Origin: Blastomyces gilchristii SLH14081
Lineage: Eukaryota > Ascomycota > Eurotiomycetes > Onygenales > Ajellomycetaceae
DNA: 64,000 bases
Direction of reading: 5' to 3'
Assembly: GCF_000003855.2 (NCBI RefSeq)
Contig: NW_003101681.1
Location: forward strand, 5,099,698 to 5,163,697
The notes under the pieces were generated by a model. That model was given only the letters and a program-made list of their open reading frames with translations. It was not told the origin of the DNA and did no database searches. Position numbers and translations under genes: made by a program. Positions 11,011 through 64,000 of the stretch are shown here, in pieces. Position 1 is the first letter of the stretch. Each line of letters starts with the position of its first letter.

Positions 11011-12390
11011 GCCTCGAATTGAGGGGACTGGGAGCCTTTCTTTCACAATATCAGAAACCTACTTCCAAGACCAAGGCATTTCGATCGCTGAGGTGATGTA
11101 CAGAGTACTTGACTGGTTACCGTCGTCATCGCTTGCCACATCCATCAGGCGGCGAAAATCACCTGTTTTTACACGACAAGCACCGACCAGGAAGCAATGT
11201 ATATAGAAGCGCTCTTTGGAATGAAGATGGGGACGTCCTTGGGTTTTCAGATATGCCCTAAAACGCGGGGGAAGTTAATGTAGGATTGGATTGGATTGGT
11301 GTACTGGGATCGCGGCCGTGGAGCTTATTTATCGAAATAAATAGGGCACAGTAACTCATTTTTTAAAAAGGCATTACTGCAGCTGGTTTATCCAGATAAT
11401 GCAAAAGCACATACAAACTCATGTGCGTGTCTTTCATGGCATTTTTCCACGTCATTTTCTTTCTATCTTTAGACTGACTGATATGCAATAGAGTTAAGAT
11501 ATGATTTATGAAAACCACCTTCCTTTTCCAATACTAAACAAAAAGCACGAAGCTTGTTGTTCGTCTTCGCAGTGTCTACTGCAGTCAACCACTACTATAT
11601 TTTCGTTCCTGGCTTCCTGACATTAGTTGTATAGAGCCCTACTAACCATACAATAAACCTGTGCTGGGAGATCATTGCTGTGAAACATTTATTATTAGTC
11701 TCTCACTCTATCTATTAAGCAAATAGTTCAATAGAAAACATTGTTCTTGTAGAGTAGAAAAGCTGCTCATTCTGGGGAGTACTCTATACTGGGATACATG
11801 AACACGATTAATCAGAGTTAATGACAAGAATTGAATATAGCATCAATCTGAACTTCTCATTCGCCCGTAAACCGTGTAGAGGCGAATGGATGTGTGTGTA
11901 CATGTATATAAATGGTTGAACCTTACATTCAAATCCATACATTTATGTATGGATAGAATAATAGTAATTCAAATAATAGTGAGAGGTCTGGATGTTACAT
12001 CTACAGACAAATATCAAGCTGTTCTCAGGGAATCATTTACCATATAGACATTGAGGTACATGTACATATGCAGACACACGATTGGAAGTGATAGAGGACA
12101 GTATGGGACTTGCCATACTTCAATCCTTCGTAGTAGTATTAATAATTACAGATGTACGGAGTGACTCTGGGTGACGCCTAATTTGATTGCACTGGTTGTG
12201 GCCTTGGGTACATTTTATGTGGCACTTCATTTTGAAGGGCTCGCTGCTTTTATTGGGTGTTCAGCCGCCAAGTGGCTGCTTTTACTAAATTTACTGATAC
12301 CAGCACTTCTATCCAGACTCAACCCATGAGGGCCAAAGCAATCAAATCCACCATGGCTGGGTATATATACCACTATGCCCCCGAGTGTGT
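11011..12390. other. AT-shifted host spacer before the decay boundary
   Basis: No gene seen. GC content drops after about 11.33 kb, but CpG dinucleotides still occur (roughly 18 by eye up to 12.39 kb), unlike everything to the right. I therefore treat it as host intergenic DNA flanking the decayed tract. Confidence 0.5.
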
Positions 12391-12605
12391 CCCAGATGGG
12401 ATATACATGAATTGCTTTTCATCTCATACAAAATCATGTTCTTCTATTCTATTTAGCACTAAGATCTGAGCCTTATCATGATGAATAAACCTCAAATTGA
12501 AAAATGCAAGAGTCATTATATGAAGATTGTTCACAGTCCATCTTGAGATGTTAAACCAGATCTTGAGAATTCAACAAAAGTTAGCATGCAGTGGGTGAGA
12601 AACTG

Positions 12606-12615
12606 CTATAAAAGA
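12606..12615 (+). promoter_or_regulatory. TATA-like box upstream of the captain relic
   Basis: GCTATAAAAG lies about 100-130 bp before the first region that translates like the DUF3435 protein, in the right orientation. Confidence 0.3.
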
Positions 12616-12719
12616 TAAGTTTGTATAACTCTCTTCATTCTTCTAATCATTTACTTATTTCTTTAGATTTGTTAAGAAGAAGCTTAATTCACTCATTTCA
12701 TACTACTGAATAAAGAATT

Positions 12720-14719
12720 TGATAATGAATCTTGTTGAGACCTTTCTACACTGATATCTTGATAAGTATAATGTGAAATCTCTATCAGGCTTCCTTATAC
12801 TGATTTATTTCTGAAGAATATATTATTACTATGAGATGAATAAAGACTTTCTCTATAATCTGAAGTATAAGATAAAAGAGATATATCTATCTGTGTTATG
12901 AATTTAACAGATATATCTCACTGTTTCTGTAGCTCATCTGTACTATAATCAAAATTGAATACAGTCTATGTGAGATAGTTAAGTCTCAGTCATCTTACAA
13001 TGCAGATTCTCTTCTCTATCTTTTACATACTGCAGCTCTATCTGCAGTGTTCTTTTCAATACATAGACAGAGAAGTCAGTATAAAATAATATGAAAGATG
13101 ATAACAGTAACATCTACACACTCAGAAATCATTCTTAAAAGCTCAGAGTACTGTAGAATGAATGATGCTCTTCTCTGAGAAGATCTTGAACTCTTTATAA
13201 TTACAGATTCTGAGTATTCATTCTGTCAGATTCTTCTTATAAGAGTGATATATTAACTCAACAAAGATAAGTGAAATAAGAACAAGCTGTAAGTTCTATC
13301 ACTGACTCATCTTTTGAATTTAGAACTGATCTTTATCTTCAGTTCAATCTTTATATACACTGAATGAAATGATAATCTAGCATTTTGTATCATTCAGAAT
13401 ATAATAGAGTTTGTATTTATGAATCAGATCTTCAGCAGTGAGTATATCAAGAAGCCTCAAGATATCTGATATCATATCAAAGTGCCAGCACACAGAAAAA
13501 GCACACTGATTCATTTTAAAGCTTTTATAAAAGATGTGCCTGTGTTCTGATCTGAAGTCTGTGACATGTATGAAAACTGAATTACTCATTCAACAAGGGC
13601 TCTAACAGCAGTTCAATTTAAAGAGAATGAGACAAAGTTATGTATAGACACAGGTCTTAAGAATCCAGGCTCATTATACAAGTACAGAAAGGGAGCTGCA
13701 GTGCACTTTGACAGTTGATTCATCTCTGTAGCTAGAGAATATATAGAGTCTCTGACATGTGCTGCTATACAGGGAATACAACTGAACATTGAAGAAATCA
13801 TATAATGAGTCATGCAGAGAGTCATATCTTTCAGAAATATATTAATCAATGTGTGAATATGAATATGCAGTCAGTGTTTCTTGAAACAGTAATTAAAGAT
13901 ACTCTGATTAAACTCTTCTATCATTCAAATCTTATCTGTGACTTCTCTACTTCAAAACATCTAAATGATGATCAGAAGAAAACAGTCAAGAAAGATATGA
14001 AGCTGAGAGAATTAAAGTATGAATATCAGTGTCTTCAAAATAATCTCATTGCATAGTACAGATAGTTAAAGAATGTATGAGATACAGTTGAAGATTGCAG
14101 ATATTATATACTGAGTCAGTGAATTCAATTCAGATGAAAGAAATTACAAAAGAAAGTCTTTAATAAGATATATCATAACTTCTTTGAAAATGTTGATAAT
14201 GATATTATTGAGAAAAATTATCATGATCAGAATACTAGCTTTATTCCAGATACATCTCTGATTCTTTCAGAATAGAAGAAATTAGCTGATCTTGACTTTT
14301 AAAACTGAGATGTAAGTACTGTCTCTGAGTCACAGTTACTTGAGAATTGTATTTAATCTCTGGAACTTTGTCTTGCTCTTCATCATCTTCACATGCTCAA
14401 GCATCTGATGTTCAAGATTGTCCTCACAGAGCTAGCACAGAATAAGTCCTTCTCAGTCAACTTTTCAATTCAGAGCTCAACAGGTTTGCAGTGTTCTGAC
14501 TGTTTAGATAATCTGAATTATCACTCAGCAGCACAGCAATACATCTTCAGCAGCAAGTATATCTTAAAGAATTACATTAATGATGTGCATCTGACAAACA
14601 GAGACTTTTCAAAACAAGTAGAGTATCACTACTCTGATTGTAAGACATCTTTGATTTTTAAAATATATTTCTATAATTACATTGTAACTGTACATGACAT
14701 TCTACTCTCTGATGCATGA
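12720..14719 (+). pseudogene. DUF3435 tyrosine recombinase relic (Starship captain-type)
   Basis: Tyrosine-recombinase family proteins with DUF3435 excise and insert Starship elements. The relic starts with YLDKYNVKSLSGFLILIYF, resembling the N-terminal core-binding part, then is badly broken in the middle. It becomes clear from about 13660: LYKYRKGAAVHFD (box II Arg-type block), MSHAESHIFQKYINQCVNM (the family's MGH...Y block), then LNDDQKKTVKKDMKLRELK and KKVFNKIYHNFFENVDNDI, the helical region after the catalytic core. The C-terminus has a C2H2-like finger (CSDCLDNLNYH ... NYINDVHL, about 14490-14590) and a second C/H pair, as many DUF3435 proteins do. The stop is at 14717. Many in-frame stops mean it is dead. 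Family assignment is from memory; which captain family is unknown. Confidence 0.72.
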
Positions 14720-16045
14720 GAAAGCTTCTTCTTACTTTATATAAGCACTTCAGTGTTATTATTAAAATATTATCATTCTTCTGCTTCTTTCTGTGCTTGA
14801 AATATAAAGTCAAGACTGAGAAAACATGAATGCTGTTGAGTGAGAATATTTCAATGACTGTTATAAAGAGACTGTCACAGCTTTACATGTAATCTTCACT
14901 TACAGAAATCTCTCTTTATTATGAAATGAAGTGGTCACTTTCAGTGCATCTCAAGCTGATGTCTCTTCACAGAGTAGAAGTGACTGATTGAAAAGATAGT
15001 GAATTCTGAGATTCATATATGAGAGAATAAGTCAATGAAAGATCATGCAGAGAATGATGATTGATTAGAATCTTCATCTGATGTAATGTGTCAATATCAA
15101 TTTCAGTCTTGATTTATTTTATACTATGCTTATCTTGATTGTTTTCTTATTTGCTTCTGTTTTCTTCATTTAATCTTATTTCACTTCTCAGATTTTATTC
15201 CAGCTCAGAAGTTCTATTGATATTGTCTATTACATTCTCACTCAATGTTTACCTGGTCTACACTCATGATATGACATTTTCTTTGTGTGTGTTTCTTTGT
15301 ATATGTCTTTGTTTGTTTACTCTTCCCTCTCTTTTTTTGTCTCTCTCTTTGGTTTTTCTTCAAATCATTTCAGTTTGTCAATTTTATCACTCATGAATAT
15401 AGGTCATATGACTACTTCTCAGTGAGAGTTTACTATTGTGTCAGTATTTTCTCATAATGTATGAAAGCTTCTAGAAAGTGACAGAGTCTTTGAGCTTCAG
15501 TCATCTCTAGATATTTAGTTGTTCAAACTTATTAACTATAGATGTAATGAATAGCAATATTCACACTTCTTCAGATAGAATATTTACTGCTTGCAGTGTT
15601 TCAACATAAGTTCTTTCTTTCTGTAGATGCAGTTTACAGTTTAGCTATAATTCATTTAACTTATTTTATCTTTGCACTGAATAAATGTCTAATAATACTT
15701 CATTATTGCTCTTCTGTACAAATGATAATGAGAAATACATCTTGTTTGATTTTCTGTCATACATGTGTTTTTTTGTTTCTCTTTGACAAGGTCAATAATT
15801 CATGGAAGTTTAGTTACAAGAGTAAAACAATGGCCATAGTTCATAGTGCTTAGTTGTTTAAAAATATTTATTTATGAATGGTTATTCATCAATGTTGTCT
15901 GAAGACAGGGCATAATTAGCACAATTTTCTGTCACTCAATTTATGAATGCAAGTGACAAGATATCAAGACTGCTGAGATATATATAGAGCTGCATCAAAG
16001 ACCTGTTCACTTCCTCTATTCTTCTCTGTTTTTCACCTCATAACA
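14720..16045. other. No supported gene; pyrimidine-rich patch
   Basis: CpG-free AT-rich DNA. A strongly T/C-rich stretch lies at about 15136-15390. I recognise no domain in any frame. Confidence 0.5.
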
Positions 16046-23586: not shown

Positions 23587-25018
23587 ATGAATCAGATATC
23601 AAGTCTTGTTGATTCTCTTTTAAATATCATATTTTCTGAATTTATATTTATTGACATATTTTATAAAGCTCTTAATCTGAGCCTTCTGTTCAATATTCTG
23701 ATTGTCAGATATGCATTTGTTTATATCTGTATTTAAGTATATAATGAAATCTGGAAATTCTGTACTGTGAAGATATAAATTGAATTACACAGTGAGAAGT
23801 ATGAACATCTAATTATCTTTCTTAAATTCTGAGTTATCAGATGCCTGTCTCAGAGAGTTAGAAGTGAGAAATGAAGTGAAAAGAATATATCTGAGAAGTC
23901 AGAGTGAGACTGAAAAATCATTGAAGTATTGCAGTATTATTGATTTTAACTTAATAAAACTTGTTTATTTCTATTCAGAGACTCAATATTTCAGTTTCAA
24001 TGAATAGAAAGAAGCTTTGAGTTTTACTTTGAGAAGTGCTACAGTCTGTGAGTTTTAGACTGATTCTGTAAGTCAATTGAAAGATTACTTGTAAAAGTCA
24101 GATTACTTCACATCTTCAAGAATAAATCTCACATTATAATTTTCAGCTCAGAAGAGAAGTGTGTCTGTCAGACTAAGATATTATAACAATCTGTCAAAAG
24201 TATCAGCTGTCAGTTACTTGAAAGTATCTCTCTGACAGAGAGATAAAAGGAAGAAGTTTGTAATGATATGTGCAAGTTCTTGAAAGCTCAGTGAGTATAT
24301 ATGAAAACAGAAAGATTATACTACTGTGATTACCTATTTAGTGAACCCTCTGAGACTGGGAAAACTAGCCTTGTGCAAGCTTTGGCAGGCAAATATGATC
24401 TGAATATTTATATGTTGAGCTTGACAGACTAAAACATGACTGATGAAGAACTTCAGTGACTCTGTAGCCATCTATCACACTGTTGTGTCCTTCTCATTGA
24501 GGATATTGACAGTGCTGAAATCAATCATGAGAAAATGCAAGCCATACAGAAGAATGGCATGAGGCAAAATAACCAAGTATCACTCTCTGGCCTCTTGAAC
24601 GCGATTGACGGTGTCTTATCATCCAATGGGAGAATCTTGGTCATGATCACAAACTGCTGACATCAACTTGATGCGGCCCTTATCCGCCCGGGACATGTGG
24701 ACATGGAAGTGAAATTTACACTGATATCAAAGAAGCAAATAAAATCGATTTTCCAGCATATGTATGCTCACAGATGCTGTACCAATCTTGCAGACATAAC
24801 TGCTGAGTTCATCAATCAAGTTCCTGATTGTCAGTATAGCTCAGCAGATATTCAGAACTATCTATAGAAATATAGTAATTCTAATTATGCTGTTATGGAA
24901 GCTCAGAAGCAATTTCTGATAAAGAAGTGAACTTTTGCATCATTTTCTGCATGATATTCATTGATGATTGATGACTTGCTTAGCTAGGAAATGAAACCTG
25001 GAGAATATCACACAGTTT
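23587..25018 (+). pseudogene. BCS1-like AAA ATPase relic
   Basis: Mitochondrial BCS1-type AAA ATPases have an N-terminal TM/BCS1_N domain and one AAA module. From ATG at 23587 the relic reads through a hydrophobic segment, then EKYEHLIIFLNSELSDACL (BCS1_N-like), then YLFSEPSETGKTSLVQALAG (decayed Walker A, about 24328-24387), VLLIEDIDSA (Walker B, 24487-24516), SLSGLLNAIDGVLSSNGRIL, and LDAALIRPGHVDMEVKF, where the sensor/Arg-finger region has R changed to H. Two glycines of the Walker A GPPGTGKT have become Glu and Ser/Glu. Several stops replace expected Gln, Trp or Arg. Length (about 477 codons) fits the family. It is multicopy in many filamentous fungi; why it is here is unknown. Confidence 0.85.
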
Positions 25019-28800: not shown

Positions 28801-29240
28801 ATGCGATCTGTATGAATGGCCATACATAGACTTGAAGAAAACTACAATGCTTGGGTCTCTCAGCCCAGACCCAGGTGCACTCAGCACACTTAAAAACTTT
28901 GCATACTTGAGCAAATCTTATCTCAGCATGCTCAGCCTCTCTTCTCAATATTTTCAGATTAGCATGATCAACTAAACTCCTTTAGACTTCTGTCAAGTCC
29001 TGCTAACTTCTGAATCAATAAGAGACTTCACATGTGCTCACAATCTAATATCTTATAGAGAGTCTGAAAAGAAACAGTTTCATTATATATGAAAAATCAA
29101 TATCACTTATATAAAATATTTGATTGACTTTGAAATTATATATCTACTTTAAATATCTGTCTGATCATCATTAAACTGATATTTTTTAAATTCTCAGTCA
29201 TTCTGCTATTATCTCTGCTATTTTACAACTCACTATCTCT
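25871..29240. other. Decayed, unassigned sequence (probable relic coding fragments)
   Basis: Plus-strand fragments such as REAFKHLKPDEYFKLKSLKY (about 26560-26620) and open stretches at 27824-28057 and 28481-28777 look like former protein, but I cannot name a family. The last contains a small CpG-retaining patch near 28625. A transposase or an LRR/F-box-type C-terminus are possible readings only. Confidence 0.35.
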
Positions 29241-30267
29241 TCTCATTATATTATAATTATTGATAAAAGACAGTGTGTCTTTTGAATCTCAAGATATTCA
29301 ATGTCAGATATGCTTCAGCTAATATTCTTTATCACTTAAAGATGAATTCTCTCTATAATCACTACAGTCTCTTAATAATATAGATGATGAATATAATATA
29401 TCAGACAGTGACTTAACAGAGCTTAAATCTATTAATACTTCTTCAGAATTTGAGATTACTGATACTGATACTGATACTCTGCAAGCTTGTTCATAATTAA
29501 ATTACTATGACTCATAGTATCTGTCTACAATATCTTATAATTAGTAGAAAAGATAGTTAAAATTATCTTATATTATTAGAATATTATAGTGAAATAGTTA
29601 AGAAATGAAGATCTTTATAGAGACTTGAATTCAGAGTTCTAATATCTTAACTTATTAATAATATAGTACTTCTATAAAGCAGTGAAATACACTATATTCA
29701 GCACTTTTCAAAGTAGAAATATTCAATGATAATCAATATTATACTGTCTTACTTATATAGAAGCTGAAATATCTTATTAATACTCTTTTCTTTATAAAAT
29801 TCAATTATAATTCTGATCTGAATATTATTGACTTTCAGACTACTTTTGAGATTATTCAGACTGATGTGTTAACTTGATTTGATCTACTTACTTCTATTCT
29901 AAAAAATAAATATGTCAATTGAAAGAGCTATGAATAAGACTCAGATAAAATAACAGCTATCAAATAACTATTTATTATTATAAGTATTATATATCACTCT
30001 TATTTCTTAAAAAACTTGAACTTCTTCAGCTCTATTCTCTCTGTATATTTTTATAACTTAGAAGTAAAATGATAAGTAATAGAAATTATTTTTAACTTTA
30101 AACTCTATCACAGCTATGTAATAAGAAATAGATTGATAATGAAAATTACTAAATAAGAGAAGATATGACTTAATATTCTTAACTTATTAATATTTCTATC
30201 TAATATCTTAAACTTCTAGTAATCTCTGATAATATCTGTTATTTTCTAACATGTTCTTTGAACTTCT
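29241..30267 (+). pseudogene. DUF6589 protein relic, N-terminal half (interrupted by LINE)
   Basis: Heavily decayed, extremely AT-rich. Reading through stops gives NLNFFSSILSVYFYNLEVK and IEIIFNFKLYHSYVI, matching the region ahead of the DNMNFKKTVRDE core in DUF6589 proteins (fungal family of unknown function, often high copy). The gene continues at 31438 after a LINE insertion. The short direct repeat at 30255-30267 marks the break. Confidence 0.65.
30255..30267. repeat. Left target-site duplication of the LINE insertion
   Basis: TCTTTGAACTTCT, identical to 31425-31437. The two copies exactly bracket the non-DUF6589 sequence. Confidence 0.85.
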
Positions 30268-31424
30268 TCAAACTCATTGAAATAAAATCTCATAAAAGAG
30301 GAAATAGTTTGAAAGAGGCATGAATATTCTCTGATAGTCAAGCTGCTTTAAAAAGACTTAGAAATAGTCAGATTCATAATGATCAAATGAATCTTGAACT
30401 GATTTTAAACTCTGTTTTGAAAATTCAAAAGAGAAGAACATCAAAACTGATAATTCATCTACATTGAGTTCCTGCTCATATGAATATTCATGGTAATGAA
30501 TTGGCTGATTCAGCTGCAAAAAAGGGTTCAGAATTAAGCAGATCTATTCAAAAAACAGTGTCCTGGTCTTTCATAAAGAGAAAGATAAAAGAATCTTGTT
30601 TAAATAAGTGAAATGAAAGCTGGCAGAAACAAAAGAAGAGCATATATTATTCAAGATTTGAGATAAAATCAAAGTGGAAATCTTGTTCAATTAAATGCAA
30701 AAAGAAAATATTCTCATTCATAATTCAGCTAAAACTAGGACATGGTTATTTCAAATCCTATATACAAAGATTTGATGATAGATTTGATTCAACAGAGTGC
30801 TCATTCTGCAATACAAATGAGAATTCTGAGCATATTATAATACATTGTGCATTATACAATAGTCTCAGAGTCAGATTAAAGAAGAAGTATGATTTAAATC
30901 AATTAAATATGAGGTTCTCATTCTCAACTGAGACAGGACTTAAATACTTAATAGACTTTCTATCAGAAACTCAAGCAGCTACAAGAAAATAGCTCAACTC
31001 AGAAGTATCTGAATATGAAGAGATGGAAATTGATTAGATATAGTCTGTTAAAACAGCTATACACTATCTTTTAATAATTTTATTTTATTATAGTCTCTCT
31101 TTACTGTACTTGTTTCTTTCTGTTCTTTTCTATCTATCTATTTAATGTGTCTATCTTTAAGACTATGTTCTCTTTTCCTTTGTCATGATATTTTCAAATG
31201 GTTTCAAAGTATCAGAAGGTGTTGAAATACTGCAATTTGTAAACAGTTTTTATATTCTGAGCTGGAATTTTCTGATTTTGCATATCTGAAATTGATAAAT
31301 GTATAATAGTTGACTCTATAGATATAGGAAAAACTCTGAGAACTAAAGGTTCTCAGGTAGATATCATAGTCTCTGACTGCATACATCTATAATTGAAGAA
31401 TAATAATAATAATAATAATAATAA
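30268..31424 (+). mobile_element. 5'-truncated non-LTR retrotransposon (LINE, I/Tad-like) with RNase H, Zn knuckle and (AAT)n tail
   Basis: About 1.16 kb 3' end of a LINE. It opens within an RNase H domain: IFSDSQAALKRLRNSQI, then LHxVPAHMNIHGNELADSAA (usual HWVPGHxGIxGNExAD; the Trp codon is now TGA). It continues to LKLGHGYFKSYIQRF and a terminal CX2CX7HX4C knuckle (about 30798-30850), ending at TAG 30990. About 400 bp of 3' UTR follow, then an AAT-repeat tail (31399-31424). Missing upstream endonuclease and reverse transcriptase, a simple-repeat tail and a 13-bp target duplication are the marks of target-primed reverse transcription with 5' truncation. It lies inside the DUF6589 relic, so it inserted later. 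Confidence 0.88.
31399..31424 (+). repeat. (AAT)n tail of the LINE
   Basis: Eight to nine AAT units directly before the right target-site duplication. TAA-type tails are known for I-clade LINEs. Confidence 0.9.
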
Positions 31425-31437
31425 TCTTTGAACTTCT
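31425..31437. repeat. Right target-site duplication of the LINE insertion
   Basis: TCTTTGAACTTCT, second copy of the sequence at 30255-30267; DUF6589 coding text resumes right after it. Confidence 0.85.
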
Positions 31438-33320
31438 ATTAACTTCTGAGTCAATCACTTGACTAATTCTTACTGTTAGATTAAACTTCAGCAGCTTGTC
31501 AAAGATTCTTGAGCTGTTATAGTCTATGATAATATGAACTTCAAGAAGACTGTATAAGATGAGATAATCAGATATAATAATTTCATAACTGCTGTAACTA
31601 CTGCTGCTGTAATTATTTCTTCTAAGATTTCAGAATCTGATCTAACTCAGATCATGCATGATTTCACAAGACTATTAACACTGTAAGAAATCATTGATAT
31701 ATCTAATATAACAGATAATAATAATAAGCTTCAGAAGTAAATAATATCATGTTTTATTTCAGATACTATTTGAAAGATTTATAATAATAAGATTAAAAGT
31801 GTTTTCAGTACTGTAAATAATTTACTATTTTAAATATCTATTATTAATACACTTTCTATGTATAGAATGTGTTTTCAGCAGTTGAGTACTATTTTTGAAA
31901 ATGAGAGCACTATTGCAGAAACTATGAGAGTTCATGAGAAGATATTTAATAATTTTCTTGATTTATTAAGAGATTATACAGCATTTTCAACTCATCTCTT
32001 TTCAGTGTATGAAGATACTTTGATTATAAAACTTATTTAATCAGTCAAGATAAAGCAGTTAAAATCTACAGATATCTTTAAACAGTGCAACTAACTTCAT
32101 TCTATTTTTAAATAATTTCATATTTAAATGAATCTACTCTTCACTATTATTTATACTCATTTTGAAGCTGAAGTCTCTGAGAAGACTCATCACTGTATTC
32201 AGTTTAATCTTACTTATTAAAACTGAAATTCTATAACTACTATCAATCTGAAATATCATCTTCTTAAGTCAGTGATTTCTCAGAGCTTTATATCTTGAAG
32301 TCTTACTCTATTTTATACTATTATATAATATTGAGATTATTCAGTTAGTAATCTTGAGTGCTCAGAAGATATTGATTCTATTATATAATAGCTTAGTTCT
32401 TCACAGTATCTTCAGCTTATTAAAGATGTATACATCAAAGTATTTACTCTTAATATCTGAAATAAAATTAACTCTCAAATCTCTCAGCTTACTCAAGATA
32501 TTGAATTCTGTATTATATATTATCTTCTCTGAGAATATGAATTATTCATTTGAATATACTATGCTGTTAAGCATGATAATATTGAACTTCTTAAGTACTT
32601 TATTTTATCTCTGATTATCTTCTTTCTTAGTACTGATTAATATAATTATGTCACTGAGATGCTTCATTATTTTTAAATACTTCAATTCATCAAAATCTCT
32701 TCTCTATATTAAGTGATTATAACTGCAGATCTTGTCAACTGATCTGAAAAACCTGACTTCTTCAAAGCAATTGATCTAGGTATGAAACATCTCAATGATA
32801 GCTGTAAGCTGAAGATGAAATGTTATAAAAATTTAATAAAGAATATCTATCTTATATTTGATTGAGTCTGTCTGTTAAATATATGAGTTCATCAGCTATA
32901 GTAGATTTTAGAGTCTATCTTTGAGCATTCACTTACTGAGAAATATATAAGTGCTGTTACTAAGCTTGAGATATTCTCTACTACTAAAAGTCTGTTGAAG
33001 AATGATTATATCTCATCTTGAGATTTACTTTTACTATCAAAGAAATGTATGTTTGACTTCTTGAATATACTTTTGATTGAAGTGAAAAGTCTGAAGAAGA
33101 AGATTAAGTACTTTAATTAAGTGTGAATTCAGCAGCAGCTGATTACAATGAACTTGAATTTAAATAATATAATTATTAATGCTGAAGTTGAGTCTTATTC
33201 TGAGAAATTCAATGATAATATAGAGTAAGATTCTATTTTTATTGAAAATATACTATCTTTATCTACTGTAAATAATCTATCTGATACTTTGAAAACAATT
33301 CTGAAGAAGAATAATTAAAA
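31438..33320 (+). pseudogene. DUF6589 protein relic, C-terminal half
   Basis: Text characteristic of DUF6589 runs the full length: YDNMNFKKTV*DE (about 31540), MHDFTRLL, IFENESTIAETMRVHEKIF, LFSVYEDTLIIKLIQSVKI, then FHI*MNLLFTIIYTHFE, AVKHDNIELLKY, KPDFFKAIDLGMKHLN and CKLKMKCYKN near 32760-32830. Stars replace Arg, Trp and Gln of relatives, e.g. N*LHSIFK*FHI for an NWMLGIPAWFHIQ-like block. The region is far more AT- and TpA-rich than the cargo on either side. DUF6589 proteins are of unknown function; their copy number in fungi suggests a transposon-borne gene, which is inference. Removing the LINE restores one continuous gene from 29.25 to 33.3 kb. Confidence 0.85.
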
Positions 33321-34600
33321 CTGATGAATATACTGTAGCTTTTAGACTGGCCGCTGAGATCATGAATTTCACATTTAATTTCATTTGGTCTGGTCTCATA
33401 CATTTCTTGGTGTGAATCCCGCTGGGACTAGTTATTAAAAAAACATGCAAAGTGACTATATATAAGATCTTAAAATGAAACCATGACTTGAAAAAAATGA
33501 GAAAGTGATTTCATTTGATCTCATTTATTCTCATTCTTAGCATAAAGTTACTATTTTTAGACATTTTAAGGTTTTTTTAGACTATTTTTAATTTTTTAAA
33601 AAGTAACACTTTTTGATAATACTCAAATGAGATTTAAAGTCATTTAAAGCAATAAAAATAATTTAAATTGAGAAGTGGAAATCATGGTCTTATTTGAAAA
33701 ATGTGACAAGAGTAGACAGTAAGTCTTACTGAGACAGTATGAGACTACTATCTAATGTTAAAACTGTGTAATGAGATTGATCAAATTGATAATAAGACTA
33801 TCAAAAAATCTGGTCCTGGTCTCAGACACAGTCACATGATCAGTCTAGTAGCTTTACTTACTTCATCTTCATTTAATATATAATATTACATTTTCACTGA
33901 TAAATATATTAATAATTGAACTTCTGTATTGTTCTGTTAACTTATGAGCTAATTAAATATCAAGATTTAAAATAAACATGACTAACATCTGATAAATTTT
34001 ATTTTTGAGATATTATTTTCTATATTAACTAATTTATATTTATAACTGATACTTACAAAGAATGTCTGCATAGAATCTTCAATACATTCATTTATACAGA
34101 TTACTTATTTATTAGAGTTCTACTTGAAATCTTCTTCATAAAGCAGAGCAGTATAAATAAAATAAGAATCTAAATTATCAGAGCACTGCTTTCTGATGAA
34201 GAAGAAGATAATCTCTTTGACAGTAACTGATATGACTGCATTGATGAGAATGCACTGAGATTCTTGAGCTTGTGTTTGAAGATACTATATTCATTCTTGT
34301 GTACAATAATCTGACAGTGAGAACAAGAATTCTCAGACTTGGTTATCTGAGCTCTCTTCTTCTCAGAGTACACTCAACATTTCTCATTATTCTCTTAACA
34401 GGCAGTACATCTGTTCTCTTTCAACAGCTGCTCACTCAGCTCTGTCTTCATTATTCAGTCAATATGGCCTCACATCCTCTGCTTCTGCAGAGAGAAGCAC
34501 TGGAACTTCTTATAGAAGATCAATCATCATTTCTCTGATTTCTGGGGCTGATAGAATGATGAGCTCTTGCTCATCATTCAATTTCAATCCTGTCTTAGCT
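33321..34600. other. AT-rich remainder and unassigned sequence
   Basis: 33321-34150 shares the extreme AT content of the DUF6589 block. TAGACTGG at about 33342 and the inverse of TCAGTCTA near 33840 might be ends of a small element of about 500 bp; the match is short. At 34272-34538 there is an 88-codon open frame with no recognisable domain. Confidence 0.35.
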
Positions 34601-42995: not shown

Positions 42996-43059
42996 CTTTC
43001 ACTAATCATTCTGCTGTAGCAATGGTCTCAGAGACCTATGTTCTCAATCTATCTATGAA

Positions 43060-45292
43060 GAAAGATAGGTGTTGACTAGAGTCAGTGAAGATTGATTTGA
43101 CACATCTAAAGTTTGACAGAGAACAAGCAGGGATTGTAGCTCAATATGTCAGCCAGTTCAATGTGAAATGATTGATGAACAAGTTTGAGACAGACCAGTG
43201 TCACTGGCTGAAGCCTCAGCATTGAATATCTGTCATCATTGAACAGACTGTTTTTGAGCAAATCCTGAGTTACAATTCAATGACAAGCCTTAGTCAGTTC
43301 ATTTCAGTTGTCATAAATCTCCTGACTGACTGCATGCTTCAAGGCTTGCAGAGATGAGTGTGCAAAGCAGCAGCAGCTGAATGACTTAATCTCAATGATC
43401 AGTGATGAGTTGTCAAGTTCTATGATATCAATGACCTGTCTTCTGAGGCTCTCAGAAGCCTTCAGAAGTATCAAGATACCTCTCAAGAGTTGTCTAGTGA
43501 AGAGATATACTGGAATGTAATGTACCATCAGCAGCAGAGAGATGAAACAAAGATTGATGAATGATTGACAAGATGAGCAGGGCATTCAACCTATTACTGA
43601 AATTTCAACCAGCTTCAGAAAGAAAGCTGGAAGATTTATCTAATCTATGATGCATTAAGCAAGCTGCATCAATTTCCTGAGCTCTGGTGATTCTGAAATA
43701 TAGGCAGTCTGAACCTTCTCTTATCAATGAGATGTTCTGAGATGTGTGGAAACTTTATCTGTCTTATTGTCATAATACTGATCTCAGATAGAAGCTCTCA
43801 AACAGTCTAAGTCACATCTGAAATGTGTGAAACCAGATCATGAGCAATAGGCCTGATCTTTTGAATGCTAATTCTGTGAACAGTCTCAAGGGTCATTGCC
43901 TCTACTTGTCAAAGAATGATCATGAGTATATTGATGAGCTCTTTGAGAATGAAGCAGTGTTTCCTCATTTCAATAAATCAGAAGAATGAGAGTTGCTTCA
44001 TCAGCAATTGATGAAGACTCAAATCATCATCTCTTTCTTCTGAATATTTATCAAGGATGTCAAACAGTTGAACCTGATAGTGAAGCTTTTAAAGAGGTTT
44101 CAGTCTTCAAAATACAAAGACACTGTTCAGAAGAGAATGAAGTGATGTTATAAATAACCAGCTCATGATTTCTATATCCAGATATCTGAGATCACACACC
44201 GCTGAGAATGGAATGTGGAATGCTATGGCTTCTGATTGACATATCACCAGGTGGTTCTTGCGGTGATGCAGCACTTTGTCGGGCTAGTTCCAGGATCTCT
44301 GCCACTTAAAATGCATAAGGTCCCACCTTCTCAACTCCAGGAAAATCCCCTGGTTCTGTGAAATCAATTGAAAACCCTTTCATCATCAGTTGACTTCATT
44401 CTAAGATCAGAATCTTTTGTTAGAGACAATGATTGCTCCTTACAGAATAGAAACAACAATGCCCTAGATACTGATGCCTCTCATCCGCGTCTCACATGCA
44501 ATGAGCTGAGAAAATGATCAATCAGTAGCTATTATGAGATGACAGATGACCTCTCATATTACTCAGACAGGAAATATCTCTATCTTGATAACATCTACTC
44601 ACACCCAGGAGATGTGCCTTGATCACAAATGACATTCTTCACAGTCAAGCAGAACTTCATACTTGTATACTTTCTGCAATGTGAACAGTGAGATGTCTGC
44701 CCTAATGTGAAACAACATTATATCATACTAGTTAATACTGATATGCACAATGCTGATATGAATGTGAAGCAAAATTATACTGAATCAACTAATACTGATA
44801 TGCGTGATGGGCCAGCAGCAACCCTGTCATCAACCAGTCATATCAGAATGCTGGCAGGAGTCACCTCAGCTGAATTACATACAGATGTTGCTATTACAGA
44901 ACAAGATCTTGAATGATGCAGAATGAAGATAAATTTATCACTGAGAGTATTCACAGCTTACTACAAGAATATAGCATCACAAGTTGAACACAAGTATGAG
45001 ATCATTTTCAACACAGAGACATCTGAAATCACATGTATTCTTGATATTGACTCTCTCTCAAACTCTCATTGACTAAAGAGTGATATCTGGTGCATGACTC
45101 CTCTACATAAGAGTCATCTTATCATTGTTACTTCAACAGAGGTTTCATCAGAGCTTCAGAGAGTGAAATTAATTTTTATAGAAAGTACATCATATCAAGA
45201 CTTTCAACAAAAACTTTTATTTTCTGATTATATCTTAACAAGGATTCAAGAAGCTACAATGTTTCCAGACCTCAAACTGAGAACAAGATAAT
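43060..45292 (+). pseudogene. DUF3723 protein relic
   Basis: DUF3723 proteins are fungal proteins of unknown function that recur in Starship elements. Read-through gives AGIVAQYVSQFNVK, NLNDQ**VVKFYDINDLSSE, LIYDALSKLHQFPELW, then after a phase change NQIMSNRPDLLNANSVNSL, HEYIDELFENEAVFPHF, PAHDFYIQISEITHR*EWNV and a run to KLIFIESTSYQDFQQKLLF at the C-terminus, stop at about 45290. The 3' half contains near-duplicate MHNADMNVKQNYTES / MRDGPAATLSSTSH blocks, so the tail is repeat-like. Stops sit at expected Arg/Trp. It diverges from the PLP relic with under 100 bp between presumed starts. Family identity is from recognition of several separated blocks. Confidence 0.78.
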
Positions 45293-46479: not shown

Positions 46480-48225
46480 CTTTTTCACTGTTGTTGATTT
46501 TACAGCTCTGTCATCTGATTCAGGGCAGTTCTACATGTCCTACACCTAGCTAGCACTTTCACATGTAATGTTGTGAGTGTCAATACTCTTCATGAAGCTG
46601 GTTCAAGGGCTGGATTCCTTGCTCTACTATATATAACTCTGCTGTTCTTTGATCAACAATTCAGCCTAGCTGCTGAGCTTCTTGAAGTGTTCCTCAAAGC
46701 ATACTGCATTCTTCATGAAGTCTTCAGTATTATGGCTGTTGTACAGTCAACTGTGCATGTGATAATCTCTGCTTAAGATAGAGTGTTTGATCTTGATGAC
46801 CATGCGCTTTGTTACAGTTTTATAGTAAGTAATTATTGTCTATAATTCATATTCATTACTCATATTTTACATTCTAGACTGCTGTGACACTCACAGTACT
46901 TTTTATGATTGTGTAATCTTGAATTCACTCATTGATGTATGATCTTTACATCTCTAGTCATATCCTTCTCAGTATTGCTACTTTGATCATGGTGTGACTT
47001 CATTTAGAACAGCCTATCAATTTTTGTGAGCTTCATGTCATTTGTATGATTCTTGTGACGGGATTATTCTCCAGTATGATAGCTTTATACATAGTTCACA
47101 TTGTCCTTTGTAATATGCCCTCGCCACTCACTATCACAGATGTAATTAGGAAAGATGGAGCTGTGAAGCTCACCTTTCATCCCTTACAAGCTTGAAAGAT
47201 CCGCCCAGGGCAGCATGTATATCTGTGTGTTCCAGCTGTGAGCTTCTGATCCTTTACACAATCCCATCTGTTCAACATTATCTGGAGTGAGAATGAGTCA
47301 AATGCCACTTCTGTCTCTATAATTGCTAAGATGGAAAGTGGATTCACACAAGCATTGACAGAGGGCTTTCATCGACACCTTAGAGTCATTGTGAATGAGC
47401 CATATGAGAGTCTCAGAATGGATTTGTGAGAGAAGATGTATTCATATGATGCGGTGGTATTATTCACTACTGAAATTGAAATCATGGGCCAGCTTCTATA
47501 TGTCTGCAAACTGCTTCAATACTTTATATCAGAGCAGAAGACAATGACTGAGCAGGGTGATGATATTCATAAATATTGAATTTCAGTGATTTAGAAAGTA
47601 GAAGAGCAGTGTAAGAATTAAAAATATTCTATTATTAATATTATAGCTGATGAAAGTCCTAGATTGTCATAAGTGAATTTGTGATTAAATGAATCAGCTG
47701 CTTGTGAAAGATGATGAGACTTTGATAGATCTTTCTCAGATTCATCACACAGAGATGCTAACCCTCTCACAGATTCTAAATATCTCTCTGTATATCAAAA
47801 ATAATGCTGATCATCTTCAGTGGGAAGAGAAATCATCCAGACAGATTCAGAAGCATGTGAGAAAGGCAAACTCACAGATCATTCTGGTAAGAGAGCTGTA
47901 AGAGTGGTCAACCAAGATACTTGTAACTGATATACACTCTTCATTGAAATCTTCATACAATAGACTAACAGCATACAGTCTCAGCCAGTGCTACAGTCTG
48001 TGACAAGATTTGCAATATCATCATATCTGAAAAAAGACTTCACTTTCAAGAACTTGCATTTCAGTCTTCTGAGGTTTCAGCTGACTACTGAGCATCTCAG
48101 AAGACATTGTAGTCTCCTCTCACTCTGTACAAAAGAAAAGATTGCTCATTCATGGTCTAGGATGAATTAGAAGATATTGCTATGTCTCATGAACACTGAT
48201 GACTTTCAATCTGTTCAGAGGTGAT
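46480..48225 (+). pseudogene. Ferric reductase (FRE family) relic
   Basis: Ferric reductases move electrons from NADPH via FAD and two hemes across the plasma membrane to Fe(III). An open stretch at 46573-46776 reads EAGSRAGFLALLYITLLFF with a His-containing helix (ILHEVFSIMAVVQSTVHVII), the ferric-reductase TM domain. At about 47194-47285 KIRPGQHVYLCVPAVSF*SF and TQSHLFNI match the FAD-binding block (HPF[TN]I). YDAVVLFTTEIEIMGQLLYV (about 47450) is the decayed NADPH-binding GTGIG block. DDETLIDLSQIHHTEMLTLS at 47689-47901 and a C-terminal KKDFTFKNLHFSLLRFQLTT end the gene. Some heme-helix sequence near 46850-47050 is too decayed to read. FREs are a classic Starship cargo; a cupredoxin relic nearby also concerns metals. 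Confidence 0.83.
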
Positions 48226-51910: not shown

Positions 51911-52074
51911 AACTTAAGATATTCTCAAAGACAATAATCTTTTCACTTCAAGCAGCAGTTGGCCTTGACATATTTCTCTCTTAATACCCTCCAGACTGCA
52001 TATATTTTAGTCAAATCAAGACTGATTTGATACTTTACAATGTTAGCTAGCCATTTTTAGACCTCTTTAGAAAT

Positions 52075-55213: not shown

Positions 55214-55595
55214 TTTGATGCAGAAGACTGAGAGGCTAGGTCACTGCACAGAAACAGTGTGTCACAACAGCAAGCTTTAATATCAGTGTTTTTTTCATTC
55301 ATTTTCAGCAGTGCAATCTCAGTAAATTTCAATGAGTCATATTCTCACAATATGACTGATAACCAGTTGAATGAATAAATAATGAGTGAATGCCCACTGA
55401 ATCATTGAGTCACCAACCCACGAACAAAATTTGTGGCCCCTGAGAGTCATAAATTACAAAAGCCACAAACTATAAGCTCCTTTCTAGAAATATAAATATG
55501 CTTGCTAAATCCTCTCACAATTCTGGATTTTATGAAGCAACTCATGCTTCTTTCAATCACTCTATTTCCTTAATTAATTTAAATTTGCTACAGTC
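55214..55595. other. Intergenic spacer
   Basis: Likely shared upstream region between the minus kinase-like relic and the plus repeat-protein frame. Contains a TATAAATATG-like patch near 55491. Confidence 0.4.
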
Positions 55596-56288
55596 ATGAA
55601 TATCTATCAAACTCACACTGATGAAAGTTCTCTTGTGAAGAACTCTGATATTATTAATTCTGCTTCAACTTCTCTCATTCTGGTAGCATCAGATGCTAAG
55701 CAGTCAGATATAAAGAAGTCACTCATCACATTCTCTGAATCAGCAACAAAGAAACCACCCTCTAAGAGCAAGCTGGCTGCTGAGAAAGCTTTATTATTCA
55801 GAATCTCTCAGTCAGATCTGAAGAAGTCATTCTTTGCATTTTTCATATCAGTAAAAACAAAACCACTCTCTAAGAGCTTCAAGCCCGCTGCTGAGAAAGC
55901 TTCACTCTTTGAAATCTCTCAGTATCTGGAGAAGTCATCCTTTGCCTTTTCCACACCAGCAACAAAGAAACCATGTTCTGAGAGTGTCAAGGTGACCACT
56001 GAGAAAGCTTCACTGTTTAGAATCTCTCAGTCAAATCTGGAGAAGTCATCCTTTGTCTTTTCCACACCAGCAACAAAGAAACCATGTTCTGAGAGTGTCA
56101 AGATAATCACTGAGAAAGCTTCACTATTTGAAATCTCTCAGTCAGATCTGAAGAAGTCACTCTTTGTCTTTTCCACATCAGTAATAAACAAGCCAGCAGC
56201 TGCTTCACTATTCAGAAGCTCTCAGTCAGATCTGAAGAAGTCATCTTTTGCCTCAGCTGACAAAAGAAAAAAGCCTTCTCTGTTTTGA
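55596..56288 (+). CDS. Repeat protein, 230 codons uninterrupted, 36-37-residue repeats
   Basis: This is the longest open frame in the decayed tract. After a short Ser/Thr-rich head it holds about five repeats of 36-37 residues with the pattern EKASLFxISQSDLxKSSF then AFSTPATKKPxSESxK. Unit starts lie near 55782, 55893, 56001 and 56112 (spacings 111, 108 and 111 bp, all in phase). Alternating basic and Ser/Phe motifs recall disordered nuclear or nucleoporin-like proteins, but no FG-repeat identity is proven. A recent in-phase expansion after most CpG loss could explain why it is open. It ends in a Lys-rich KRKKPSLF tail. Whether it is expressed is unknown. Confidence 0.45.
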   Translation: MNIYQTHTDESSLVKNSDIINSASTSLILVASDAKQSDIKKSLITFSESATKKPPSKSKLAAEKALLFRISQSDLKKSFFAFFISVKTKPLSKSFKPAAEKASLFEISQYLEKSSFAFSTPATKKPCSESVKVTTEKASLFRISQSNLEKSSFVFSTPATKKPCSESVKIITEKASLFEISQSDLKKSLFVFSTSVINKPAAASLFRSSQSDLKKSSFASADKRKKPSLF

Positions 56289-60905: not shown

Positions 60906-61349
60906 CAATATAGAGGATGATTCAATCTCACAACATCTTTTTCATTTTTCTCTCAAGTTAGTGAGTTTTAGTCTTAATTGTATTTGTCATGTCAACAGTC
61001 AAAGTTTGTGCAAGAAGTCTCTTTTCTAGATTAAACATCTTTCACATGCCATCTCAATCATCAGTTTTGACTCAGCTTGTACAGTGCTGTTCTCTTATCT
61101 CTGTATCACAAGCAGGTTCTTTGCTGTGAATGTGAGACCAGTGTAGCATAAATGAGAACAATCTCAATGATGAGTCTATAACATTTTCAAACAGCTCTGG
61201 CCAGATATATCATTTAATCACTTGACAAAGCTCTGCAGGCATTTCTTCAGAATAAAAAAAAGGAATAGATAGATAGATTGATTCTATTCATTTACTCTGA
61301 ATAAATTCTCTATAATGAGGATAGAATCAGGTCAGCATATTCATTTCCT

Positions 61350-62787
61350 ACATTCATAAGTGAGTTGAGTAATGAGATGCTCAAGATCCTGCATCTAGCC
61401 ATTCTCCTGCGTCTGAGCCACTGCTCTCTACTCATACATCACTCACAGATAACTTAATAAGCCCAGCTGATGAAGATGTGTCAGTGTCACAAGCTTCATG
61501 AACATCAGCAAGGGAAAAAGGTCCTGCATCTAGTCATCTTTCTGTGCCTGAGCCACTGCTCTCTGCTCATACATCACTCACAGATGACTCAATGAGCTCA
61601 GCTGATAAAGATGTGTCAGTGTCATGAGCTCCATGAACATCAGCAAGAGAGAAAGAATCCTGAGACTGAGAAGTTTGCATGGCTATGTCATGATAGACAG
61701 TGAAGCCATCTCTATATTTGAAGAGGTTGAAAATGGGTGTTGATGATGAGTAGAGGCTTGTGACTTTGCTGACTGGGCTGGAACAAGCTGGATCTAGATG
61801 ATGTTGTTAATCTTCAGTAGGGAAAGATAATTCATGAAAGACTGTTGAGTAAGAGGCTTTGTAACTAGAAGTACTCAACTGATTATTAAAAAGATGCATA
61901 AATTGCTCATCAGGTTTGATTGCTGAGAGAATGAAGACAGGTTGTTACTCAAATGTTGAGTTTGTTATTAACATTGCATTTCATCATTTCAGTGAGAAGA
62001 TTGATTTTCCAATCTCTGATGAAGATTGGTGACTTTTGAAATATTTTGAGTTTCTTAACTTGCTTGAGCTTTTGAAATCTTGATTCAAGTTACATTTGAC
62101 AGCTTTTCTGACAGTAATATAAACCAATGTACTTGCATCTGAATATCATGTTAATTTCAAACACTATAATCATAAGATATGAATGAATCTATCAATATGT
62201 TCATTCTCATAGTGCTTCTCTATTTCTCTAACTTGGTATATCTCATTCAACACTGCTGACTTCTCACATGGAGTAAGCTGACATTGTTGAACATTCTTCC
62301 CAGCTTCTCTTAGCTTGTGAACAGTCATTCTCTGAGCACAGATGTGAAGTATGTGAATAAGAAGCTTGATCTGATCTGTTAAATAATAAGTATATGAATA
62401 GAAAGTTAGATCTTATGAGTACATATCAGGCTTCTTCAAATGATCAGGCTTCTTATAAATCACATCAACAGGCCATCAGAATGATTTGATTTTATCAGGT
62501 TCTCTCAGTTTCTCTTCATTGTAGAGATGTATGAACTGCTTTTGTGATTCAATAATCTTTATATAAGCCTTGGCAATCTGACAGCAGTTAAGTTACTGAA
62601 ATCTGACAAAAGTCTCTATATAATAAGCTGTGATTCTTTCCTTATCTTCAATTGATATGCCTGTCTTGTCTCTTGCATCATCATCAAAATCATCATCAGT
62701 CTCAGAGTGTTGATATTTCTGTGAGTTTGCATTTATCAGGTCTTGTTTTTGAGTGACTCATTGCTGAAATTGAGCCTTCATATTCAT
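61350..62787 (-). pseudogene. DUF2841-like protein relic with duplicated C-terminal segment
   Basis: From ATG 62787 (MNMKAQFQQ) the frame passes an acidic ETDDDFDDDARDK stretch, then GISIEDKERITAYYIETFV, QIAKAYIKIIESQKQFIHLY, KSF*WPVDVIYKKPDHLKKP, QIKLLIHILHICAQ, KLREAGKNVQQCQLTP and VLNEIYQVREIEKHYENEHI. The WWP block (Trp now TGA), the IKLLIHIL helix and the final EIYxVRxxExxYExxEID helix match what I remember of fungal DUF2841 proteins, whose function is unknown. The C-terminal third, after IFNLFKYRDGFTVYHDIAMQ, contains two 45-residue repeats (61388-61657). Stops are few. Confidence 0.5.
61388..61657. repeat. Tandem duplication, two copies of 135 bp (45 codons)
   Basis: CCTGCATCTAG starts at 61388 and again at 61523; copies are about 87 percent alike by eye. 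The period is a multiple of three and both copies read in the minus frame of the DUF2841-like relic (SLADVHxAxDTDTS ... SSVSDV), so it arose as an in-phase coding duplication. Confidence 0.85.
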
Positions 62788-63760
62788 GGGAAATAAGTGG
62801 TGATGAAATGGCAGTATTGATGATGAGAAGTCATATTGAACTTTCCCAGTCTCATTCAGATATATCATTGCATAATGTGAGAGCTCATGATACAGTTATT
62901 CAAGTTTCAGAGAAGCAGTGCCTAGAGCCTGGCTATTGGCCATTATGTGTTATTGTAGTCTTAGTGTTGTCAGATGTCAATCTTGAATGTTCAAAAGATA
63001 TGAATAATTCAAGAAAATATCTGAGATCATAAGTGAGGCAATATATTAATGAAAAGCCATGGAGTAAAAATGGGTGCAGAGATATACTTATACTCAGGTT
63101 CATCTTGATATGATCCTGATGTGAATTGTCTTTTCTTCAACTTTCAAGTGAGATGCTGGATAAATTTCTGAAGCATCAAGCCTCTCAATTCAGCTGATAA
63201 AAGAATGTTTCACACTCACATCTGAAAGAATTGAGCTGATTGTTTTCTGCCGCGACAGCTCTTGCAGTAATAAGAAAAATTTGGCTTTGATGAGATGACT
63301 GATACTAAATTCAGAAAGGCCTGAGTGAATATCTTGCTCAGACAGCATCTTAGATTTTCCTGTTCTAGTAAGTGTTCAATATCTTAGCATTTAAGACTTT
63401 CCTGTTTTATGCTTACCTGCTGGCTGTTTCTGCTTGTTGCTGTTATTGAATGCTGGGGGCAATCAGGCTTGATGTGAACTTCAGAGCATATGAGCATCAC
63501 ATCTTCTGAGTCATCTGCATCAACACAGTTCTACACTGATCTTAACTGTAAATGCTGTTATCTGTGCATGCGTCAATTTAAAATGAAAGTGAAAGTGAAC
63601 AAGCATGAGAGACTCAGTCATATCTGCAGCAGGAAATTCAAAAATGTCAAGACTTGAATACACAATGAAGACCTTGGCATTGTGTGTTTTCTAAAAGAAG
63701 AGAAAAGATGATAGAAGAAAGAAGATGAGTAAAATTAAGAAAAAGAAAAGCTGTGAAAAA
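62788..63760. other. No supported gene
   Basis: CpG-poor spacer with an open plus frame at 62808-63032 that overlaps the upstream region of the DUF2841-like gene and has no recognisable domain. Confidence 0.4.
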
Positions 63761-63920
63761 AGTTAGTCAGATTGGAAATATAAGAAACAACTTTCATCTC
63801 ATGAAAAAAAGTCTTTGTATGATATTCATTTCTTGAGTTGAAAAGTTAGTCAGATTGAAAATATAAGAAATAACTTTCATCTCATGAAAAAAAGTCTTTG
63901 CATAATATTCATTTCTTGGG
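63761..63920. repeat. Tandem repeat, two copies of about 83 bp
   Basis: AGTTAGTCAGATT at 63761 recurs at 63844; the copies share CAACTTTCATCTCATG and AAAGTCTTTG blocks with only a few differences. Non-coding as far as I can see. Confidence 0.88.
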
Positions 63921-64000
63921 TCTGTCTTAGTTTTAAATGATATTTGCTCTTTCTATCATTCTACTGTGCAGAGATATCATTTTGCAGTTAACATGTGATT

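What the first reader, a model, noticed from the sequence alone, without database searches (positions are those of the whole stretch)
12390..64000. A decayed Starship-type giant transposon hidden in a gene-poor isochore
Seen: DUF3435-type recombinase relic as the first gene inside the boundary, reading inward, then patatin-like phospholipase, DUF3723, ferric reductase and a SANT/Myb-like gene, all broken by stops. Known: in Starships the DUF3435 captain sits at one end and DUF3723, PLP, FRE and NLR genes are the recurrent accessory set. Inference: at least 52 kb of this window is the captain-proximal part of one inactivated Starship. Such fully mutated copies are easy to miss because standard gene calling returns almost nothing.
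Basis: partly seen in the sequence, partly recalled or inferred. Interest (0 to 1): 0.93.

Follow-up and report, generated by a model that had tools for sequence, protein, structure and literature searches.

The report
Mutation-killed Starship giant transposon in Blastomyces
A 90,000-base "Starship" jumping element that carried its own genes moved within the genome of the fungus Blastomyces and was then wrecked in both places by what looks like the fungus's anti-repeat mutation system; its jumping enzyme is almost the same as one in the related fungus Histoplasma, which suggests it crossed between the two.

Summary
The window lies in a 74.8-Mb Blastomyces genome. The gene-poor block is one discrete Starship of 90,103 bp (window 12,154 to 102,256 on the extended contig), with a DUF3435 captain relic at its 5' end, short terminal inverted repeats and the direct repeat GTACGGAGT. 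A second copy (82,412 bp) lies 4.8 Mb away between unrelated flanks with the same ends; 19 of 19 samples of it match in order. A third copy keeps only the captain end. The element is dead but not old: 1,339 of 1,343 sampled differences between the two copies are C:G/T:A transitions, made independently in each copy, which fits repeat-induced point mutation (RIP) after a recent transposition. The captain has 7 of 601 residue differences from a Histoplasma capsulatum protein that C-to-T changes cannot explain; a flanking host gene has 81 of 391. Horizontal transfer is likely. The repeat shares most of its bases with the published Tardis-type Starship target and matches the SomA-binding motif. DUF3723, a ferric-reductase-type FAD domain and a BCS1-like ATPase are confirmed; patatin and SANT/Myb are not.

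The parts
12154..64000 (+). In-window part of one Starship; the whole element runs from 12,154 to 102,256 on the extended contig (90,103 bp)
   Evidence: Shared ends and collinearity with copy B at C2:236,166-318,577
12154..12162 (+). Left direct repeat GTACGGAGT (right copy at 102,248-102,256)
   Evidence: Same 9 bp at 4 of 4 ends of the two full copies, with flanks that show no similarity
12163..12183 (+). Left terminal inverted repeat; shares 10 exact bases (ACGCCTAATT) with the reverse complement of the right end
   Evidence: of 20,000 draws of 25-bp pairs (pairs under 60 bp apart or with N skipped but kept in the 20,000), 20 from the element and 7 from the left flank reach 10 bp
12481..14716 (+). 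Captain relic (DUF3435 tyrosine recombinase), matched in four stretches
   Evidence: PF11917 hits; matches to Histoplasma P0001/P0002 from their first Met on
24334..24891 (+). Relic of a BCS1-like AAA ATPase
   Evidence: PF00004 E 9.8e-14; BCS1 lid E 1e-5, just under its cut-off
29200..34000 (.). Nested transposon block (related to an RNase H stretch at 80-81.6 kb; DUF6589 stretch at 31,762-32,808), apparently mutated before the last jump
   Evidence: PF20231 E 6.4e-25; related stretch has PF00075 RNase H; cross-hits within the element; 98.4% and 98.7% identity between copies against 88.9-94.6% in the body
43199..44397 (+). DUF3723 relic (recurrent Starship accessory gene)
   Evidence: PF12520; same gene in copy B at C2:285,345-286,546
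47160..47378 (+). Ferric-reductase-type FAD-binding domain relic
   Evidence: PF08022 27.3 bits, above the cut-off of 22
55578..56288 (+). Repeat ORF (111-bp, 37-residue units), the only stop-to-stop frame of 150 aa or more in the in-window part of the block; function unknown

Best explanation
The block is a Starship giant transposon. Its captain, a DUF3435 tyrosine recombinase, most likely recombined the element's ends with a GTACGGAGT site in the chromosome, so that the 9-bp motif now stands at both ends. The element sat in the genome as one intact copy long enough to collect smaller transposons, which were mutated there because they were repeats. It then moved or copied to a second site, which put two roughly 85-kb identical sequences in one genome. 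RIP of the Onygenalean kind (CpG, then CpC, then CpA) then mutated both copies separately along nearly their whole length, sparing some CpGs in the last 70 bp (right) to 230 bp (left), and destroyed the captain and cargo. The captain's near-identity to a Histoplasma protein says that the lineage passed between the two genera by horizontal transfer. Shown: ends, repeats, collinearity of the samples, mutation spectrum, independence of the CpG hits, captain similarity. Inferred: captain catalysis, meiotic RIP, the order TE-mutation before duplication (the TE stretches were set aside after seeing the data), direction and date of transfer, and any link between the target motif and SomA binding.
For: Captain first and inward. 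Two full copies with exact common ends, GTACGGAGT at all four junctions and no BLAST similarity among the flanks fetched. 19 of 19 samples of copy B hit the window copy, best hits in one order. 1,343 mismatches in 18,683 aligned bases, 1,339 of them transitions; 145 dinucleotides read TG in one copy and CA in the other, as two independent hits on one CpG would leave. Loss per copy by context in the body, assuming independence: CpC 0.38, CpA 0.11, CpT 0.02, and 0.90 where the next base is itself G/A-variable, the mark of former CpGs. A Coccidioides review reports repeat-induced mutation 'especially affecting CpG and CpC' (PMC9409882, one passage). Five stretches in repeat-rich parts are 95.9-99.1% alike between the copies, the other 15 88.9-94.6%. 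5 CpGs in the last 69 bp are intact in both copies. Captain against H. capsulatum P0002: 416 of 601 residues identical, 178 explicable by C-to-T/G-to-A, 7 not; host gene against Histoplasma 81 of 391 not explicable.
Against: No empty site from another strain could be fetched. No intact copy of this element was seen in this genome, so activity is inferred. The horizontal-transfer test rests on one mobile gene and one host gene; a stricter count gives 21 of 601 unexplained for the window captain, 33 of 511 for copy B and 31 of 485 for copy C, part of it from codons read across introns. Of the five stretches set aside as nested TE, the one at 93.2 kb had no second hit within the element. Patatin is absent. 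Which methylase gene is RID is not settled.
Confidence: 0.85

Rival explanations
1. An old segmental duplication of an AT-rich isochore that happens to contain Starship-like genes, not a mobile unit.
For: Blastomyces genomes hold long GC-poor tracts enriched for gypsy elements (PMC4595289, passages), and a second AT-rich block starts near 144 kb.
Against: Homology stops at GTACGGAGT on both sides of both copies and the flanks show no similarity; 4 transversions in 18,683 bases is not old.
Confidence: 0.03
2. A composite: a small captain element inserted beside cargo relics that arrived as unrelated insertions.
For: Copy C matches in place only from the captain end to about 17.75 kb among the points sampled, and lacks the 3' terminus; nested TEs are present.
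Against: Copy B has the same order over the full length in 19 of 19 samples and the same 3' end.
Confidence: 0.04
3. No horizontal transfer: the captain has been inherited vertically in Blastomyces and Histoplasma and is simply conserved.
For: Both genera are in one family (Ajellomycetaceae, by recall); only one host gene served as control; stricter counts leave 3.5-6.5% of captain residues unexplained.
Against: The captain family is not slow: H. ohiense against H. capsulatum 90%, Coccidioides immitis 53-59% and A. fumigatus 47-50%. The window captain has 1.2% unexplained residues against H. capsulatum, less than the host gene has even against B. silverae (4.3%).
Confidence: 0.15
4. Slow deamination of methylated CpG over a long time, not RIP, caused the decay.
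For: CpG is by far the most affected site, and cytosine methylase genes are present.
Against: CpC and CpA are also mutated, CpG loss stops short of the ends, flanks keep CpG o/e mostly 0.65-1.1, and transversions are almost nil.
Confidence: 0.12

Closest known systems
Tardis-type Starship of Aspergillus fumigatus (Tardis h1; PMC12153272, passages read)
   Same: Predicted target TACGGAGTAG with a 9-11 bp direct repeat (shares TACGGAGT(A) with the repeat here); mean length 81.7 kb (here 82.4 and 90.1 kb); motif over-represented in the host genome; the paper says the repeat is conserved among other Eurotiomycetes, citing earlier work
   Different: Other genus; two full copies in one genome, both mutated, whereas the paper finds Starships in A. 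fumigatus at most single-copy with few exceptions; family assignment by captain tree not done here (closest A. fumigatus captain P0127 is 50% to the Histoplasma relative, but is not labelled Tardis)
Histoplasma captains P0002 (I7I51_03469, H. capsulatum) and P0001 (H. ohiense)
   Same: Same protein from the first Met on; apart from C-to-T-type changes 594 of 601 residues agree with P0002
Multi-copy Starships degraded by RIP in other fungi
   Same: PMC12153272 states, citing earlier work, that RIP can degrade multi-copy Starships and may limit copy number (passage)
   Different: Here the order of events can be proposed from two copies: nested TEs mutated first, then duplication, then independent mutation of both copies

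Membership tests
Starship | DUF3435 tyrosine-recombinase captain at the 5' end, reading inward | tested here: met
Starship | Flanking short direct repeats at precise boundaries | tested here: met
   GTACGGAGT at 4 of 4 ends of the two full copies
Starship | Terminal inverted repeats (18 of 20 in A. fumigatus, PMC12153272, passage) | tested here: met
   10 exact bases within 25 bp of both ends; chance about 20 in 20,000. Short and imperfect
Starship | Giant unit with cargo, found at different loci with the same ends | tested here: met
   90,103 and 82,412 bp; 19 of 19 samples hit
Starship | Recurrent accessory genes DUF3723, FRE, PLP, NLR | tested here: inconclusive
   DUF3723 and FAD_binding_8 present; patatin not found; NLR not searched by its own profile
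Starship | Captain-catalysed transposition | not testable with these tools
   Captain is broken in all three copies seen
Tardis-type Starship | Direct repeat/target TACGGAGTAG (CTACGGAGTA) | tested here: met
   TACGGAGT in the repeat and A after it in both copies; the next base (C, T) and the one before (G) differ from the published consensus
Tardis-type Starship | Captain groups with Tardis captains in a tree | not tested
   No labelled Tardis captain was at hand
RIP | C:G-to-T:A only, confined to the repeated unit | tested here: met
   1,339 of 1,343 mismatches are transitions; flanks not depleted
RIP | RID-type cytosine methylase in the genome | tested here: inconclusive
   Four PF00145 matches in three genes, one with BAH (DIM-2-like by recall) and one compact one; none proved to be RID
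Horizontal transfer | Element gene closer between hosts than host genes are | tested here: met
   7 of 601 against 81 of 391 unexplained residues; one gene each; strict count 21 of 601

The most novel reading that the evidence does not exclude
Tardis-class captains use a genome-wide transcription-factor box as their attachment site: the direct repeat GTACGGAGT with its flanking A and C at the window copy's right junction is the SomA-binding motif GTACTCCGTAC read on the other strand, which occurs 622 times in this genome against 10 for the reversed control. Such elements would therefore land in promoters and carry the box at both ends, and one of them recently passed between Histoplasma and Blastomyces, two genera of human pathogens, before RIP killed it in Blastomyces.
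Probability: 0.5. Interest if true: 0.85.

Novelty: new member of a known kind. Interest (0 to 1): 0.72.

Why it matters
No paper in the searched library holds Starship, captain and Blastomyces together (0 papers), and none of the 16 papers with three of Starship, Histoplasma, transposon and captain mentions Histoplasma (2021 on); bioRxiv and supplements were not searched. If right, it adds gene transfer by giant transposons to the endemic dimorphic pathogens. It is a clean natural record of how genome defence can kill a Starship once it has two copies. It also makes a published open question testable: the A. fumigatus Starship paper asked what the Tardis motif is and pointed to a C6 zinc-cluster motif; the ChIP-seq and gel-shift motif of SomA shares TACGGAGTA with it, 9 of the 10 published bases. 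Fully mutated Starships like this one can escape gene calling, so surveys that start from intact captains may undercount them.

Tried and rejected
Classic CpA-type RIP indices fail here (TpA/ApT 0.58-0.89 in the block against 0.75 in the flank) and would miss the mutation; the pairwise spectrum of two copies was needed. An 18-kb DNA query missed even itself, so short queries were used. Special sparing of the ends by mismatch runs is not convincing (a 90-bp run at the left end and 45 bp at the right, but runs up to 94 bp in the body); only CpG retention at the ends is. Pfam scans of 40 stop-masked pieces of the element (10 each; some overlap) gave AAA, BCS1 lid, DUF6589, FAD_binding_8 and RNase H, weak hits taken as chance (Cpf1 REC2, ECT2 PH, SYCP2, ASFV_360) and nothing else; they do not cover all frames. 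The RNase H of the 30-kb block was not itself scored by Pfam; the related stretch at 80-81.6 kb was. Copy C was sampled at 17 points (16, 1) besides its 5-kb end: 5 samples hit, only two of them (280,500 and 278,500) in the place expected, the other three in sequence from 91.7-97.6 kb of the window copy; 12 gave no hit. Its status (truncated, or other cargo) is open. In the pairwise count one of 21 pieces of copy B (252,000) was left out because it spans an insertion, and one (296,000) was used in part; the five stretches called nested TE were chosen after their identity and cross-hits had been seen. For the captain test 12 of the proteins found were compared. A search for papers by the motif letters gave 248 papers of which 30 were listed, mostly unrelated; the SomA paper was picked from that list.
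Full report
WHERE IT IS. The window is C2:5,099,698-5,163,697 of a 74.8-Mb genome in 75 contigs. A single-exon gene 4 kb left of the window is 100% identical over the aligned part to Blastomyces dermatitidis ER-3 BDCG_04494 (P0004), 92% to B. silverae and 73% to Histoplasma capsulatum (392 of 393 residues for P0004), so the host is Blastomyces (the species and strain were not determined further). Blastomyces genomes are known for long GC-poor tracts (PMC4595289, passages).

THE UNIT. GC and CpG fall sharply at about 12.3 kb and rise again at about 102.1 kb in the extended contig. A DNA search with 12,300-15,300 found two further long copies at 90-91%: B at C2:about 318 kb and C at C24:about 284 kb, both on the other strand; four shorter matches (63-506 bp) cover only its last 500 bp. 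Homology with B starts at 12,152 and with C between 12,147 and 12,154. The right end of the block matches B up to window coordinate 102,257. At both ends of both full copies stands GTACGGAGT, and the flanks fetched (about 3 kb left, about 1 kb right) show no similarity. The window copy is 90,103 bp and B is 82,412 bp from repeat to repeat. The two ends carry an imperfect inverted repeat with 10 exact bases; 20 of 20,000 random draws from the element and 7 of 20,000 from the flank do as well. C-to-T-tolerant patterns for the two termini hit three 5' ends (window copy, B, C) and two 3' ends (window copy, B) in the genome, and nothing with the reversed control.

ONE ELEMENT, NOT A PILE. Nineteen 800-bp samples of B, 4 kb apart, all hit the window copy, best hits in one order. 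The window copy has about 7 kb more between 78.6 and 89.2 kb, and about 0.5 kb more near 78 kb. DUF3723 lies 30-31 kb from the captain in both. Copy C matches in place from the captain end to 17.75 kb; 12 of its 17 further samples give no hit.

HOW IT DIED. Over 18,683 aligned bases in 20 stretches the copies differ at 1,343, of which 4 are transversions. 145 dinucleotides read TG in one copy and CA in the other; 18 CpGs are intact in both and 20 in one, so roughly nine in ten former CpGs were hit (my estimate from these counts, assuming independence). In the 15 body stretches the chance of loss per copy is 0.38 for CpC, 0.11 for CpA and 0.02 for CpT. This order fits the CpG and CpC preference reported for Coccidioides (PMC9409882, one passage) and differs from the CpA preference of most fungi (PMC2621366, passages). 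The standard TpA index would not show it. Four of five stretches in repeat-rich parts are 97.8-99.1% identical and show no TG/CA pairs, the fifth (97.6 kb) is 95.9% with four; the 15 body stretches are 88.9-94.6%. These five were set aside after seeing them; the one at 93.2 kb had no second hit within the element, though an out-of-place piece of copy C matches it at 86.6%. Read plainly: the small transposons inside were already mutated when the element was duplicated, while the body was not. Three cytosine-methylase genes are present; which of them is RID is not settled. CpGs survive in both copies within about 70 bp of the right end and at three places within 230 bp of the left end, as expected if mutation follows the paired repeat and fades at its edges. 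Copy C is also mutated: it differs from the other two by 176-207 transitions and 1-2 transversions over 2,002 bases.

HORIZONTAL TRANSFER. The captain, read with X at each stop, found three proteins at E of 1e-3 or better, all from Histoplasma. Of 601 residues of H. capsulatum P0002 covered, 416 are identical, 178 differ in a way that C-to-T or G-to-A could produce, and 7 do not. This takes the better of two overlapping matches at introns. A stricter count gives 21 of 601 for the window copy, 33 of 511 for B and 31 of 485 for C. Against P0001 it is 30 of 672 (strict 45), and against ten other captains chosen from the hit list 31.7-44.5%. In a gap-free stretch of 253 codons 90.6% of differing codons are of the C-to-T kind, against a mean of 11.1% (maximum 16.5%) in 500 shuffles; 6 of the 8 unexplained codons lie in its first ten, at the intron. 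The host control gene has 81 of 391 unexplained against Histoplasma and 17 of 393 against B. silverae. The captain is thus closer to Histoplasma's than this host gene is between two Blastomyces species. With one gene on each side this is good but not final evidence; direction is unknown.

TARGET SITE. The A. fumigatus Starship paper gives TACGGAGTAG as the Tardis target, notes that CTACGGAGTA is strongly over-represented, suggests a transcription-factor site, points to predicted C6 zinc-cluster motifs, says the repeat is conserved among other Eurotiomycetes, and calls the motif of interest for future research (PMC12153272, passages). The word SomA does not occur in its main text. The SomA paper gives GTACTCCGTAC as the top ChIP-seq motif, found in 119 of 476, and tested by gel shift (PMC7667024, passages). 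Its reverse complement, GTACGGAGTAC, stands exactly at the right junction of the window copy; copy B has GTACGGAGTAT there. GTACGGAGTAC occurs 622 times in this genome, the reversed control 10 times. No listed paper that holds the SomA motif also holds 'Starship' (10 papers with two of three terms, three with the motif, none of these with Starship). That the motif is bound by SomA in Blastomyces, or that it is a promoter element there, is untested.

CARGO. Confirmed by profile: DUF3723, FAD_binding_8 of the ferric-reductase type, BCS1-like AAA ATPase. Not found: patatin, SANT/Myb. The rest of the cargo gave no convincing Pfam match in the frames scanned.

VERDICT. A real Starship, not named in Blastomyces in the papers searched, of Tardis type by its target site (captain tree not done), killed by RIP-like mutation after a recent jump, and probably exchanged with Histoplasma.

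Noticed in passing
G000, whole genome: 88 DUF3435 matches, many broken by stops (counts are lower bounds): the genome looks like a graveyard of Starship captains; some frames are unbroken.
   Followed up: no
Extended contig, about 86-88 kb in window coordinates (L011): A pocket with CpG o/e 0.45 inside the otherwise nearly CpG-free element, within the stretch where copy B is about 7 kb shorter; perhaps a young insertion.
   Followed up: no
Extended contig, 144-250 kb in window coordinates (L018-L027): A second AT-rich block, mostly more heavily mutated (CpC/GpG o/e often 0.1-0.3), right of about 42 kb of normal DNA.
   Followed up: no
window 31,762-32,808: DUF6589 (PF20231, E 6.4e-25) within the nested transposon block; its link to the retroelement is unclear.
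   Followed up: no
window 55,578-56,288: A 236-residue open frame of 37-residue repeats, the only one of 150 aa or more in the in-window part of the block; no convincing Pfam hit.
   Followed up: partly
C24:about 250-284.5 kb: Copy C shares the captain end but lacks the 3' end and, at the points sampled, the later cargo; truncated, or a sister element with other cargo.
   Followed up: partly
C2:319,746-319,763: Two overlapping GTACGGAGTAC boxes about 1.2 kb outside the captain end of copy B.
   Followed up: no
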